From: Acetobacterium sp. KB-1
GTDB lineage: Bacteria; Bacillota; Clostridia; Eubacteriales; Eubacteriaceae
Reading direction: 5' to 3'
Length of the DNA stretch: 64,000 bases
NCBI RefSeq assembly: GCF_003260995.1
Contig: NZ_CP030040.1
Location: forward strand, 3,271,176-3,335,175
Positions 8,612 through 14,139 of this stretch are shown piece after piece. Under the pieces are notes generated by a model that was not told the origin of the DNA, did no database searches, and saw only the letters and a list, made by a program, of their open reading frames with translations. Each line of letters begins with the position of its first letter. Position 1 is the stretch's first letter. The translations under genes and the position numbers were made by a program.

Positions 8612-8862
8612 GAATATAAATGTGAAGATAAGGACGCTGTGGGGAATGCTTTAACAGAGAGATAATCATTTTGGTGAAAGATTATTAAAAGACACCTCAG
8701 AGAGATCACCTTTGAACAGAATTTTTGAAGACTGGTTAACCGTTGGTTAAATCAGAGTAGGAAATTCCGGGGAACCGTTAAATTCATAGAGTGGGCAGTT
8801 TTCTGCCAACTTGGGTGGTACCGCGATTTTTCGTCCCTTGGATTTTTCAGGGGGCGTTTTTT
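8612..8862 (+). ncRNA. T-box riboswitch, isoleucine specific
   Basis: The leader has the conserved antiterminator sequence TGGGTGGTACCGCG at 8812-8825, followed by a hairpin (8831-8856) and a T-run as terminator. Upstream are the AG-bulge ACAGAGAG and the distal-loop GGTGAAAG of Stem I. The codon ATC at 8705-8707, just before ACCTTTGAAC, sits where the specifier is expected and encodes isoleucine, in line with the ileS gene downstream. Uncharged tRNA-Ile would stabilise the antiterminator and switch the gene on. Confidence 0.92.
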
Positions 8863-9027
8863 GTATTTGTTGATTAGCACCGTTTAGCACATTTACGCGC
8901 GAGCTTTTATTTTATCAAAGCAACGAGATAAGCGCATAGTTTGGGTATTTAATTCAAAACATGCGCTTACAACACCGTCAACTTAAATCATTTAATTCAA
9001 GGAAAGAGACTTTATGGAGGTAGAAAT

Positions 9028-12000
9028 TTGGCACAGTTCAAAACATTAATAGAAGGAAAAATCGGCGAAAGAGAAGACGTGATCTCTAAGCAATGGGAAG
9101 CCATGAATCTTTTGCAGAAAACCATTGATAATCGGGAAGGACAAGAAAATTTTGTCTTTTATGAAGGGCCCCCAACTGCAAATGGTCGGCCCGGGATTCA
9201 TCACGTGCTGGCCCGAACCCTAAAAGATACGGTCTGTAAATACAAGGTCATGGATGGTTATCGGGTCATTCGTAAAGGCGGTTGGGACACTCATGGCCTA
9301 CCGGTGGAAATCGAAGTGGAAAAACAGTTGGGTCTTTCCAGCAAACTGGAAATTGAAGCTTACGGCATCGATAAGTTCAACGAAAAATGTAAGGAATCGG
9401 TCTTTAATTATGAAAGCCAATGGAAAGAAATGAGCCGCAAAATGGGTTATTTCATCGATATGGAAGATCCTTACATTACGTTGGATAATAATTATATTGA
9501 AACCGTCTGGTGGATTCTGGATAAGTTCAATAAAGAAGGCTTTCTTTATGAAGGTCACAAGATCATGCCTTATTGTCCCCGTTGCGGTACCGGTCTGGCA
9601 TCGCACGAGGTTGCCCAGGGTTATCAGGAAATAAAAAGTAATACCGTTGTGGCCGCATTTAAACGAAGCGATGCCAACGAATACTTTTTGGTGTGGACCA
9701 CCACCCCCTGGACATTGGCGGCCAATGTCGCCCTGGCCGTTCATCCCGATGCCGACTACATTAAAGCCCGCAGCAATGATGAAGTTTATATCTGCGCCAA
9801 GGTTTTAGCACCCAAGTTATTGGGTGAAGACTACGAGATTCTGGAAGAAATGAAGGGCTCGGCGCTGGAATACGTTGAGTATGAACAGCTGATGCCGTTC
9901 GTGGTTCCCGATAAAAAAGCCTTTTTTGTCACCTGTGCCGATTATGTCACCACCGAAGACGGTACCGGGATTGTTCATATCGCTCCCGCCTTTGGGGAAG
10001 ATGACTACAAGGTTGGTCGTCAGTACAACCTGCCGGTGTTGCAGCCAGTGGCCGAGGACGGAAAATACACCGACACCCCCTGGAAGGGACAATTTGTCAT
10101 CGATGCCGATCTGGATATTATTAAATGGCTGAAGGCTGAAGGAAAACTGTTTAAAAAAGAAAAAGTCACCCATAACTATCCCCATTGCTGGCGCTGTAAA
10201 ACCCCTTTGCTCTATTATGCCAAACCAAGCTGGTATCTGGAAATGACCAAGATTAAGGACCGTTTGATTGAAAACAATAATGGCGTCGAATGGTACCCGG
10301 ATTTTGTTGGCGAAAAACGCTTCGGTAACTGGCTGGAAAACCTTAACGACTGGGCGATTTCCCGCAGCCGCTACTGGGGTACACCGCTGCCAGTCTGGCG
10401 CTGTGAGGAATGCGGTAAGCTGGAAACCGTCGGTTCCCGCAAAGAATTAGTCGAGCGGGCTGTTGAAAACATCGATGAAAGCATTGAGCTGCACCGCCCT
10501 TACGTCGACGATGTCCATTTCACCTGTCCCGATTGTGGCAAAACAATGACCCGGGTCAAAGATGTCATTGACTGCTGGTTTGATTCCGGCTCGATGCCCT
10601 TTGCCCAGTATCACTACCCCTTTGAAAATAAAGAGTTGTGGGAAGAACAATTCCCGGCTGATTTCATTTGTGAAGGGATTGACCAGACCCGCGGCTGGTT
10701 TTATTCATTACTGGCAATTTCCTCCTTTGTAACCGGAAAAGCACCCTATAAAAAAGTATTGGTCAATGACCTGATTCTTGATGCTGAAGGACAGAAAATG
10801 TCGAAAACAAAGGGCAATAGTGTTGATCCCTTAGAAATGTTTGCTGAATACGGGGCTGATGCGCTGCGTTGGTATCTGCTTTATGTATCACCAGCCTGGA
10901 CTCCGACCCGTTTTGATGTTAAGGGAATCAAAGAGGTGCAAAGCAAGTTCTTTAACACCCTGAAAAATACCTATCATTTCTTTGCCCTTTATGCCAACAC
11001 CGATAACATTGACCCAAGAGCGTTTTTTGTGCCCTATGCCAAGCGTCCGGAAATCGATGCCTGGATTCTGTCTAAATATAACCGACTGGTTAAAGAAGTT
11101 AGGGAAGAAATGGAAGTCTTTGATTTAACCAAAGCAGTCAAAAAAATCCAGAACTTTGTCAATGAAGATTTATCTAACTGGTACATCCGCCGCAATCGCC
11201 GCCGCTTCTGGGGAACCGAACTGACGGAAGATAAAAAAGCGGTTTACAACACCACCTGGGAAGTATTAGAAGGCGTGGTTCGCCTTTGTGCCCCCTTTGC
11301 GCCTTATATCACCGAAGAACTGTACCAAAAACTGACTGATGGTATCTCTGTCCACCTGGCCGATTATCCCACCGCCAATGAAGAGCTGATACAGGATGCC
11401 ATTGAAGAACCGATGGATCTGGTCAGAGAACTGGTCAGCCTTGGTCGGGGGGCCCGCGAAGAAGCCCAGATCAAGGTGCGACAACCCTTGTCTAAAATTA
11501 TTGTGGATGGTAAATACCGGGAAACGCTGGGCGATTTATGTGTCCTGATCGAAGAAGAATTAAATATTAAACAGGTCGTCTTTGAAGAAAATTTGGGTGA
11601 TTTTATGAACTATGCCCTAAAACCGGACTTTAAGGTGGCCGGCCCGGTGCTCGGCAAAAATGTCAAGCTGTTGGGCAAGGCACTGGCATCGGCACCCGCC
11701 AGTGAGGTGGTAGCCAAGCTTGAAGCCGATGGCAGCTTTGTAATTGAGCTGGATGGACAAAGCCTTGAACTGCGCAAAGATTTCATTGACATTCGAATTT
11801 CCGCTAAAGAAGGCTTTAATGTGCAGATGTTTAACAACAAGTTTATCATTCTCGATACCAGCTTAAATCAGGATTTGCTCGATGAAGGCTGTGCCCGGGA
11901 ATTTGTCTCTCGCATTCAACAACTACGAAAGTCAAGCGGCTACGAAGTCATGGACCGCATCGACATTAGCTATAGCAGTGATGCACAAATGGATCGGGCC

Positions 12001-12126
12001 ATTGAGATCTTTACTGATTTTATTAAAACCGAAACCCTGGCGGATACGATCACCATCAAAGCCGGTGTGGGGGAAGTGTTTAGTCTGAACGGACATGATA
12101 CAAGGATTGAGCTTATAAAGAAATAA
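9028..12126 (+). CDS. ileS: isoleucyl-tRNA synthetase, type 2, with GIHH signature
   Basis: This 1032-residue cytoplasmic enzyme charges tRNA-Ile. The long form with KMSKTKGNS (Lys590 onward) and PPTANGRPG opening marks it as the eukaryote-like IleRS2 clade. The ATP-binding signature reads GIHH at residues 56-59 where class I synthetases have HIGH or HxGH, so the first and third positions are swapped. Two zinc-type knuckles (CPRCG, CPDCG) and CWRCK are visible, and WTTTPWTL and the editing domain are intact. The start is TTG at 9028, six bases after GGAGG. Expression is controlled by the T-box upstream. From memory, GxHH IleRS2 enzymes show extreme mupirocin resistance while staying active. 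Confidence 0.96.
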   Translation: MAQFKTLIEGKIGEREDVISKQWEAMNLLQKTIDNREGQENFVFYEGPPTANGRPGIHHVLARTLKDTVCKYKVMDGYRVIRKGGWDTHGLPVEIEVEKQLGLSSKLEIEAYGIDKFNEKCKESVFNYESQWKEMSRKMGYFIDMEDPYITLDNNYIETVWWILDKFNKEGFLYEGHKIMPYCPRCGTGLASHEVAQGYQEIKSNTVVAAFKRSDANEYFLVWTTTPWTLAANVALAVHPDADYIKARSNDEVYICAKVLAPKLLGEDYEILEEMKGSALEYVEYEQLMPFVVPDKKAFFVTCADYVTTEDGTGIVHIAPAFGEDDYKVGRQYNLPVLQPVAEDGKYTDTPWKGQFVIDADLDIIKWLKAEGKLFKKEKVTHNYPHCWRCKTPLLYYAKPSWYLEMTKIKDRLIENNNGVEWYPDFVGEKRFGNWLENLNDWAISRSRYWGTPLPVWRCEECGKLETVGSRKELVERAVENIDESIELHRPYVDDVHFTCPDCGKTMTRVKDVIDCWFDSGSMPFAQYHYPFENKELWEEQFPADFICEGIDQTRGWFYSLLAISSFVTGKAPYKKVLVNDLILDAEGQKMSKTKGNSVDPLEMFAEYGADALRWYLLYVSPAWTPTRFDVKGIKEVQSKFFNTLKNTYHFFALYANTDNIDPRAFFVPYAKRPEIDAWILSKYNRLVKEVREEMEVFDLTKAVKKIQNFVNEDLSNWYIRRNRRRFWGTELTEDKKAVYNTTWEVLEGVVRLCAPFAPYITEELYQKLTDGISVHLADYPTANEELIQDAIEEPMDLVRELVSLGRGAREEAQIKVRQPLSKIIVDGKYRETLGDLCVLIEEELNIKQVVFEENLGDFMNYALKPDFKVAGPVLGKNVKLLGKALASAPASEVVAKLEADGSFVIELDGQSLELRKDFIDIRISAKEGFNVQMFNNKFIILDTSLNQDLLDEGCAREFVSRIQQLRKSSGYEVMDRIDISYSSDAQMDRAIEIFTDFIKTETLADTITIKAGVGEVFSLNGHDTRIELIKK

Positions 12127-12257: not shown

Positions 12258-12378
12258 ATATTGAAATGCGAATGTTGAATATTGGTGTTTAGTAAGTATT
12301 GTCACTTAAGCAAGTTCGCTTCGTATTTTTATCTGATCATGATGACCTGGTAGATTTAGCGTGGAAGGAGGTGACCAA

Positions 12379-14139
12379 ATGAGAATTAACCATAATATCA
12401 TGGCAATCAATAATTATCGTCAATTAACAAATAATAGTAATAATGTCAGCAAGTCTCTGGAAAAATTATCTTCCGGGCAGAGTATCAACCGGGCCGGGGA
12501 TAATGCGGCGGGACTGGCTATTTCTGAAAAAATGAGGGGACAGATCCGAGGGCTGGATCAGGCTGGCAATAATGCCAGAGATGCCATCTCACTAATCCAA
12601 ACCGCTGAAGGGGCTTTGAGCGAAACGCACTCCCTAATCCAGCGGATGCGGGAGCTGTCGGTGCAGGCGGCCAATGATGTCAATGCTGTGGAAGACCGGG
12701 AAGCCATTCAAAACGAGATTAATCAACTGACCAAGGAAGTTGACCGGATAGGCAATGACACCGAATTTAATACCATGAAGCTGCTCAATCAGGGCAATGC
12801 CTCGGTCAGTGCGTCAGATCAGCTGAATCTGGTTTCCAGTCTTAAAAAGTGGTGGCTAGAAGAAGCGGAAGATCTCGTAACGAGTAGCTATGGCTTAACG
12901 GCCAGTGGGATTAATATGAGTGTGGAAATTATTAATGATCCGTCCAGCAGCTATGCGGCCTATGTTCAAGGCAGTTTTACCTCGGACCCCGCTAATATGG
13001 TAGGAACCCCTGGTATTACTGGGCAAGGATCAAATCTGTCGTTAAAGATTAATTTGGCTTATTCCCAACCCACCGATACTATCGATGGGGGGACGGCACC
13101 CCAATATGTGGATCGGGTGATTGCCCATGAGATTACTCATGCGGTGATGATGTCGACGATGAATTTTGGAGATTTACCAATCTGGTTTAATGAGGGGATC
13201 GCGGAGTTTACCCATGGTGGCGACGAGCGGCTTAAATCGGGCATTGCATTATTGGGCAGTATAGAAAATGTGGTGTCAAATATCGGCGACGGCTCTTATG
13301 GGGCCTGGGATGGAAATTCCAATGACTATGCATCAGCCTATTTAGCGACGCGGTATCTGGATAAGCAGATACGCCTTAATGGTGGGGCAACCGGCATTAG
13401 AGAAGTAACCACTTATCTGGCTGCAAATCCGACGCATAATCTTGATCAGGCTTTGGCATCGGTAAAGGCGACACATGCTGGACTGAGTTTTGACAGCACC
13501 TCGACTTGGATCGCTCAGTTTAAAGCAAATGTAACAACGGGCAGTTTGGGTGCGACAACCGGTGTTGTATTAGATGCCGGAAATGAAGTCGATACCGGTT
13601 CAGCCACCGGTTCAGATGCTGCTGCCGGTACCGCAAAAACGGCCGAATCGATCATGCCGGAAACAGGCGGAGCCAGTGCATCAGAAGTCAATCAACCGAT
13701 GAGCGGTTTTAACATTACCTGGCCGGATCTGGCATCTTCAGTTGGCAAGTCATTTGCTATTCAAATCGGTGCCAATACGGGGCAATCCATGGAGTTGCTC
13801 ACGAGCGATATGCGGGCAGCGGCACTGGGCATTTCCAGTTTAAAGGTGGATAGTTATACATTGGCAAACAATGCCATTAGTTCTTGTGATTCGGCGATTT
13901 CCCGAGTTTCTGCCGAGCGTTCCCGATTGGGTGCCTACCAGAACCGATTGGAGCATACCACCAGAAATCTGGAATCAGCATCAGAAAACTTAAGCTCATC
14001 AGAATCCCGGATCCGGGATGTGGATATGGCCAAGGAAATGATGAATTTTACCAAAAACAATATCCTGCAGCAAGCGGCCCAGGCAATGCTATCTCAGGCT
14101 AATCAGCAACCACAGAGTGTCTTGCAGCTATTAGCCTAA
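12379..14139 (+). CDS. flagellinolysin: flagellin with internal zinc metalloprotease domain
   Basis: This 586-residue protein is a flagellin split by a protease. Residues 1 to about 150 are a normal D0/D1 flagellin end (MRINHNIMAINNYRQL, SSGQSINRAGDNAAGLAISE). The last 115 residues are the matching C-terminal flagellin helices ending QPQSVLQLLA. Between them lies a gluzincin-type domain with HEITH (His250, Glu251, His254) and a NEGIAEF segment whose Glu272 is the expected third zinc ligand. A linker rich in Ala, Gly and Thr follows. The GTG at 12361 precedes the ribosome site AAGGAGGTGACC, so ATG 12379 is the start. The known flagellinolysin family assembles into filaments with protease on the surface. 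The gene stands alone. Confidence 0.94.
   Translation: MRINHNIMAINNYRQLTNNSNNVSKSLEKLSSGQSINRAGDNAAGLAISEKMRGQIRGLDQAGNNARDAISLIQTAEGALSETHSLIQRMRELSVQAANDVNAVEDREAIQNEINQLTKEVDRIGNDTEFNTMKLLNQGNASVSASDQLNLVSSLKKWWLEEAEDLVTSSYGLTASGINMSVEIINDPSSSYAAYVQGSFTSDPANMVGTPGITGQGSNLSLKINLAYSQPTDTIDGGTAPQYVDRVIAHEITHAVMMSTMNFGDLPIWFNEGIAEFTHGGDERLKSGIALLGSIENVVSNIGDGSYGAWDGNSNDYASAYLATRYLDKQIRLNGGATGIREVTTYLAANPTHNLDQALASVKATHAGLSFDSTSTWIAQFKANVTTGSLGATTGVVLDAGNEVDTGSATGSDAAAGTAKTAESIMPETGGASASEVNQPMSGFNITWPDLASSVGKSFAIQIGANTGQSMELLTSDMRAAALGISSLKVDSYTLANNAISSCDSAISRVSAERSRLGAYQNRLEHTTRNLESASENLSSSESRIRDVDMAKEMMNFTKNNILQQAAQAMLSQANQQPQSVLQLLA

What the first reader, a model, noticed from the sequence alone, without database searches (positions are those of the whole stretch)
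9193..9204. IleRS with swapped GIHH signature, predicting extreme mupirocin tolerance
Seen: the class I ATP-binding signature reads G56-I57-H58-H59 in an otherwise complete type 2 IleRS with KMSK intact. Known (from memory): type 2 IleRS is mupirocin tolerant, and GxHH forms found in a few Firmicutes raise resistance further while keeping catalysis. Inference: this acetogen carries such an enzyme under its only visible T-box for isoleucine, so it may be the housekeeping copy.
Basis: partly seen in the sequence, partly recalled or inferred. Interest (0 to 1): 0.75.

Follow-up and report, generated by a model that had tools for sequence, protein, structure and literature searches.

The report
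Acetogen isoleucyl-tRNA synthetase, swapped signature
The only isoleucine-loading enzyme of this acetogen carries a natural swap in its catalytic signature, already known from other bacteria to go with extreme mupirocin resistance, and here the swap looks like an old trait shared by a large group of relatives rather than something special to this organism.

Summary
Window 9028-12126 (+) encodes a complete 1032-aa type 2 isoleucyl-tRNA synthetase whose class I signature reads G56-I57-H58-H59 at 9193-9204, with KMSKT at 590-594. It lies behind a T-box leader (8616-8841) whose specifier I read as AUC. It is the only place in the genome over the ileS cut-off; the other class I hits are valyl-, leucyl- and methionyl-tRNA synthetases.

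The G/AXHH swap was described in 2023 (PMC10485003): 86 IleRS2 sequences, with a millimolar mupirocin Ki for a natural member. Here it is ordinary for the lineage: GIHH in the window and all 29 family relatives read, and a GxHH pattern in 101 of 392 genomes of the class, in every sampled genome of 21 of 85 families. On a tree of 102 sequences built without the motif, all 61 GxHH enzymes form one clade, one change of state. So the swap is an old trait of a housekeeping enzyme; hyper-resistance is well predicted but unmeasured here. By-product: 33 fetched relatives also change KMSKS to KMHKS.

The parts
8616..8841 (+). T-box leader upstream of ileS
   Evidence: RF00230, 111 bits against gathering 93, full model 1-219
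8705..8707 (+). probable T-box specifier codon AUC (isoleucine), followed by A
   Evidence: lies in the 8-nt internal loop on the 3' side of stem I in the Rfam alignment; of 18 genus loci (L008-L025) a strict pattern matched 10, all with GATCACC; 8 were not matched and not read. Which loop bases are the specifier is my reading from general knowledge of T-boxes
9016..9020 (+). GGAGG, likely ribosome-binding site
   Evidence: sequence, 7 nt before the TTG start
9028..12126 (+). ileS, type 2 isoleucyl-tRNA synthetase, 1032 aa
   Evidence: TIGR00392 ileS 979.6 bits, cut-off 621.4; best solved structure 8c8w, 1076 bits
9085..10890 (+). class I catalytic domain with editing insertion (tRNA-synt_1, aa 20-621)
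   Evidence: Pfam PF00133, 435 bits
9193..9204 (+). swapped class I signature GIHH (aa 56-59) in place of HxGH
10795..10809 (+). KMSKS-type loop, here KMSKT (aa 590-594)
11056..11499 (+). anticodon-binding domain (aa 677-824)
   Evidence: Pfam PF08264, 130.6 bits
11545..12117 (+). C-terminal DUF5915 (aa 840-1030)
   Evidence: Pfam PF19302, 161 bits

Best explanation
This is the single, housekeeping, type 2 isoleucyl-tRNA synthetase of an Acetobacterium-like acetogen, under a T-box that should sense uncharged tRNA-Ile. Its active site belongs to the known G/AXHH subgroup of IleRS2, where Gly and His at signature positions 1 and 3 are exchanged. By the published mechanism the shifted signature helix of IleRS2 lets ATP bind despite the bulky third residue, while the His at position 3 clashes with mupirocin; so the enzyme should work normally and have a mupirocin Ki far above that of HxGH IleRS2, my estimate 0.03-10 mM. 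Within the sequences sampled the motif arose once, at the base of a large clostridial/Bacilli clade, and fills whole families; it is not a recently acquired resistance gene. Shown here: the sequence, sole copy, T-box, distribution and single clade. Inferred: activity, resistance level and mechanism in this enzyme, by analogy.
For: Motif and intact KMSK. Family assignment. Sole copy: one match over the ileS cut-off in a 1-contig genome of 99.99% completeness; the other class I hits tested are ValRS, LeuRS and MetRS by NCBIfam. T-box with AUC. Distribution: GIHH in the window and 29 of 29 other family loci read; GxHH pattern in 101 of 392 class genomes, in every sampled member of 21 of 85 families, 28 of 28 genomes of the order (families tallied by eye); 62 of the 101 were also read as proteins and all have a GxHH IleRS. 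None of the 101 has the HxGH IleRS2 pattern found in 196 of 392 (compared by eye), and the one with an 'IleRS1' pattern match (G194) has there the start of a 550-codon frame that reads like a MetRS. Tree with the motif columns left out: 61 GxHH rows on one side of one branch, SH-aLRT 98-99, 1 change against a mean of 31 in 500 shuffles. Kinetics: natural ALHH D. radiodurans IleRS2 Ki 6.6 mM, 823-fold lower when changed to HVGH; laboratory GVHH versions of T. thermophilus and P. megaterium IleRS2 35 and 460 uM against 0.20 and 1.08 uM (PMC10485003 section 6).
Against: No inhibition or growth data for any Acetobacterium were found (no paper in the held library holds both 'mupirocin' and 'Acetobacterium'). 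Laboratory GVHH enzymes reached only 35-460 uM and lost up to tenfold in kcat or KM, so the level depends on the rest of the site. The tree is a quick LG+G4 tree with two IleRS1 rows as outgroup, five rows of odd composition, and no Deinococcus, Streptomyces or P. megaterium sequence, so 'once' holds only for what was sampled; the paper infers at least two origins over all bacteria. Inside the GxHH clade the tree does not follow taxonomy everywhere: two f2 rows of the window's own order (L138, L139) and one f52 row (L154) stand apart from their kin, so strict vertical descent is not shown; transfers within the clade or weak resolution are possible.
Confidence: 0.88

Rival explanations
1. The swap is a recent, selected mupirocin-resistance adaptation of this acetogen, or came by recent horizontal transfer.
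For: The motif is tied to hyper-resistance in other enzymes.
Against: The window and all 29 other family loci read, all 28 sampled genomes of the order and every sampled member of 21 families carry it; the tree shows one change at the base of the clade and the window with its own genus and family at support 100; it is the only ileS and has a T-box.
Confidence: 0.03
2. The swap was not driven by mupirocin: it is an old rearrangement of the IleRS2 active site, neutral or favoured for catalysis or against other inhibitors, and mupirocin resistance is a side effect.
For: One old change with no reversal among 61 rows; [quoted passage not shown] That the named relatives are mostly anaerobes, unlike the Pseudomonas that makes mupirocin, is from general knowledge.
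Against: The paper argues for past selection by the antibiotic and reports a natural reversal in Deinococcus-Thermus; sequence data here cannot separate the two. This rival concerns the cause only and is compatible with the best explanation.
Confidence: 0.4
3. The gene is a damaged or non-functional synthetase whose signature has decayed.
For: Loss of the first His of HIGH cripples other class I synthetases (stated in PMC10485003).
Against: It is the only IleRS found in the genome; the frame is full length with all domains; the motif is conserved through 16 codon spellings in 29 relatives.
Confidence: 0.01

Closest known systems
G/AXHH subgroup of bacterial IleRS2 (Brkic et al. 2023, PMC10485003; D. 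radiodurans ALHH, S. griseus)
   Same: Type 2 IleRS, positions 1 and 3 of the class I signature exchanged, KMSK kept
   Different: Belongs to a clostridial/Bacilli group from which, by name, no enzyme stands in the paper's Table 1; fifth loop residue Thr instead of Ser (KMSKT)
Priestia megaterium IleRS2 (PDB 8c8u, 8c8v, 8c8w, 8c9d; that these entries are the P. megaterium enzyme is inferred from their HVGH/GVHH and tryptophan-to-glutamine variants, which match the paper's constructs)
   Same: Closest solved structures, over aa 13-1014 (1060-1076 bits)
   Different: Natural motif HVGH; the GVHH form (8c8w) is a laboratory mutant; the species also has a type 1 IleRS
MupA and MupB plasmid IleRS2 (NCBIfam NF000257, NF000258)
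   Same: Same broad family; 1016 and 969 bits
   Different: Well under their curated cut-off of 1900 bits, so not MupA or MupB; chromosomal, sole copy, behind a T-box

Membership tests
Isoleucyl-tRNA synthetase (TIGR00392) | Score over the curated cut-off | tested here: met
   979.6 bits against 621.4
IleRS type 2 | Closer to solved type 2 than to type 1 enzymes and groups apart from IleRS1 | tested here: met
   8c8w 1076 bits (type 2) against 1ffy/1qu2 411 bits (S. aureus, type 1); separated from two IleRS1 rows by a branch with support 100; context PTANGxP as in the HxGH IleRS2 rows instead of PYANGxI/L
G/AXHH IleRS2 subgroup | Gly or Ala at position 1 and His at position 3 of the signature | tested here: met
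   G56, H58
G/AXHH IleRS2 subgroup | Membership in a GXHH subclade of the paper's tree | not tested
   The paper's tree and alignment are supplementary files with no look-ups allowed; my own tree gives one GxHH clade
G/AXHH IleRS2 subgroup | Mupirocin Ki in the high micromolar to millimolar range with near-normal catalysis | not testable with these tools
   Needs purified enzyme
MupA/MupB acquired resistance synthetases | Score over 1900 bits | tested here: not met
   1016 and 969 bits
T-box riboswitch (RF00230) | Score over the gathering threshold with the full model | tested here: met
   111 against 93 bits, model 1-219

The most novel reading that the evidence does not exclude
Within the GxHH clade the whole class I active site has been rebuilt in a second step: in uncultured Bacilli relatives (and one class member, L161) the other signature, KMSKS, has become KMHKS several times, putting a histidine on the opposite catalytic loop after the first histidine of HIGH was lost. 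If so, GxHH is not just a resistance swap but the start of a re-plumbed catalytic site in which a loop histidine takes over the transition-state role of the HIGH histidine. The window's own enzyme (GIHH + KMSKT) would represent the first stage.
Probability: 0.2. Interest if true: 0.55.

Novelty: new member of a known kind. Interest (0 to 1): 0.25.

Why it matters
It shows that the natural hyper-resistance signature, described in 2023, fills whole families of a clostridial class and is the sole ileS of this acetogen. That argues against reading GxHH in a genome or metagenome as acquired mupirocin resistance, and predicts (untested) intrinsic mupirocin resistance across those families. It also supplies a clade with one sampled origin in which to ask whether the swap was driven by the drug.

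Tried and rejected
Rejected: sequencing error or decay (motif kept with varying codons). Rejected: a second ileS in the genome. Rejected: G270 having two GxHH synthetases; one of its two pattern matches (L155) lies in a frame that reads nothing like a synthetase, the other is an IleRS (L156). Rejected: G194 as a genome with both GxHH IleRS2 and IleRS1; the match opens a frame reading AWPYANGSLHIGH, the MetRS context as I know it. Of the 63 genomes with the 'IleRS1' pattern I read six matches: two are IleRS1 (L213, L214) and four have the MetRS context (L215-L218), so 63 is not a count of IleRS1. Not pursued: structure prediction, since close structures are solved; the paper's supplementary tree (no look-ups allowed); specifiers of the other 14 T-box matches; whether HxGH IleRS2 of Bacilli ever have KMHKS.

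Literature: searches. Of PMC10485003 I saw the abstract and outline, passages, and sections 6, 9, 10, 11 and 18; of the other papers only the search listings. One search found KMHKS as a whole word only in a paper on a classifier program, so I found no description of it in that library.

Limits of counts; 38 of 40 family genomes have a match; 30 loci were fetched (window included), 8 matching genomes were not read there. One search read 110 loci across the motif. One search read 207 of 218 loci (157 GxHH, 50 HxGH, two of the latter IleRS1); the 11 missed are six class I hits of the own genome, L155 and L215-L218. Of the 101 GxHH-pattern genomes 62 were read as proteins, of the 196 HxGH-pattern genomes 48. 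The loci overlap in organism, so locus counts are not species counts. The tree used the window and 60 of the 157 GxHH locus sequences, 39 of 48 HxGH IleRS2 (L177 left out as incomplete, L125-L132 as short) and two IleRS1. In one search, 8 GxHH and 9 HxGH rows gave no KMSKS reading (short loci L117-L132, and L187) and are left out of the loop counts; the 41 readable HxGH rows are 39 IleRS2 and 2 IleRS1. In the tree the chosen outgroup was not one side of a branch; the count of changes does not depend on the root.

Full report
What is there. The open frame 9028-12126 (+) starts at TTG behind GGAGG (9016-9020) and encodes 1032 residues. It scores 979.6 bits on the ileS model (cut-off 621.4), has the class I catalytic domain, the anticodon-binding domain and the C-terminal DUF5915. 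Its nearest solved structures (8c8w, 8c8u, 8c8v, 8c9d; 1060-1076 bits) are by their variants the type 2 IleRS of Priestia megaterium; the S. aureus type 1 structures score 411 bits. Residues 56-59 read GIHH, at exactly 9193-9204. KMSK is intact (KMSKT, 590-594). Upstream, 8616-8841 is a T-box leader (111 bits); in the alignment the stem I internal loop reads AGAGAUCA, so I take AUC (8705-8707) as the specifier. That loop reading rests on general knowledge of T-boxes. Of 18 genus loci, a strict pattern read 10, all with GATCACC.

Which organism. The nearest named records are Acetobacterium (A. dehalogenans DSM 11527 and an A. woodii MAG, both 96%; A. wieringae 93%). The window's genome is one contig of 3,988,268 bases, 99.99% complete. 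The species is not identified.

Sole copy. Only one place in the genome is over the ileS cut-off. The three other class I genes tested are valine-, leucine- and methionine-tRNA ligases.

What is known. PMC10485003 (seen: abstract, passages, sections 6, 9, 10, 11, 18) describes the G/AXHH motif, 86 G/AXHH against 77 HXGH IleRS2 in its tree, none in IleRS1. Natural ALHH IleRS2 of Deinococcus radiodurans has a mupirocin Ki of 6.6 mM and falls 823-fold when given HVGH. Laboratory GVHH forms of T. thermophilus and P. megaterium IleRS2, which are naturally HVGH, go from 0.20 to 35 uM and from 1.08 to 460 uM. The proposed mechanism is a clash of the third-position His with mupirocin, while a shifted signature helix in IleRS2 leaves room for ATP.

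How common it is around the window. Of 38 family genomes with a match, 30 were fetched, the window included; all read GIHH. In the 29 relatives L008-L036 the four codons take 16 spellings, so the protein motif is held by selection. In 392 genomes of the class with completeness of 95 or more, a GxHH pattern in IleRS2 context is found in 101, an HxGH pattern in 196. Read off the two tables by eye, the 101 include every sampled genome of 21 of 85 families, among them 28 of 28 genomes of the window's order, and share no genome with the 196. I read 62 of the 101 and 48 of the 196 as proteins; all agreed, apart from one extra chance match in G270. The remaining 95 genomes have neither pattern. An IleRS1-like pattern matched 63 genomes, but four of six matches that I read have the MetRS context, so I do not use it as a count of IleRS1.

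One clade. I aligned 102 sequences: the window, 60 other GxHH enzymes, 39 HxGH IleRS2 and two IleRS1. The signature columns were left out before the tree was built (1022 columns, IQ-TREE quick, LG+G4). All 61 GxHH rows fall on one side of one branch (support 98-99), with one change of state against a mean of 31 in 500 shuffles. Within what was sampled, the swap arose once and was never reversed. This fits the paper's GXHH subclade; I could not open its tree to check identity. Against a simple story: inside the clade the tree departs from taxonomy in places (L138 and L139 of the window's order, and L154 of f52, stand apart from their kin), five rows have odd composition, and the sample lacks Deinococcus, Streptomyces and P. 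megaterium. Descent within the clade is therefore mostly, not provenly, vertical.

What it does. Most likely it charges tRNA-Ile as in any cell, and the altered signature makes it insensitive to all but very high mupirocin. Shown: sequence, copy number, leader, distribution, clade. Inferred: activity and resistance of this very enzyme. Sequence data cannot say whether mupirocin drove the change; an old single change in a single-copy gene is also compatible with resistance as a side effect.

By-product. Among relatives fetched for comparison, 33 GxHH enzymes read KMHKS in place of KMSKS: 32 of 61 Bacilli-type MAG loci and L161. None of 41 HxGH sequences with a readable loop does (39 IleRS2, 2 IleRS1); 30 of the 39 HxGH IleRS2 read KMSKH instead. 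The tree needs at least 6 changes for KMHKS. The DNA pattern for KMHKS in its context matches 33 of 33 known cases and 0 of 378 genomes drawn from the window's phylum. Against over-reading: only 16 of those 378 are of the window's class, and G048, which has KMHKS (L161), was not drawn; the Bacilli loci were fetched as nearest kin of a GxHH query, so that KMHKS occurs only with GxHH may reflect sampling; HxGH enzymes of Bacilli were not examined. I found no mention of KMHKS for a synthetase in the library searched.

Verdict. Confirmed observation, correct core interpretation, already published mechanism, ordinary for the lineage. New member of a known kind; interest 0.25.

Noticed in passing
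L054-L116 (32 of 61 Bacilli-type loci) and L161: GxHH IleRS2 enzymes in which the second class I signature is also altered, KMSKS to KMHKS; at least 6 changes on the tree, 0 of 41 readable HxGH sequences, 0 of 378 phylum genomes by DNA pattern.
   Followed up: partly
HxGH IleRS2 loci of the class, L173-L212: 30 of 39 HxGH IleRS2 with a readable loop have KMSKH in place of KMSKS.
   Followed up: no
window 12361-14139 (+): Flagellin with Flagellin_N and Flagellin_C ends and an inserted stretch with a HEITH zinc-peptidase motif and a weak Peptidase_M9 match under Pfam's cut-off (21.0 against 26), just downstream of ileS; looks like a flagellinolysin (name recalled).
   Followed up: partly
genome G000, 15 places incl. 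window 8616-8841: 15 T-box matches in the genome, 9 over the gathering score; specifiers of the other 14 not read.
   Followed up: no
alignment columns 62, 70, 580 and 581 (window numbering): Clade markers near the active site: A/S62, C70 (57 of 61) and N580 (57 of 61) with mostly D581 in GxHH rows of the tree, against T62, P70, L/M/I580 and G581 in all 39 HxGH rows. With one origin of GxHH these cannot be told from shared ancestry.
   Followed up: no
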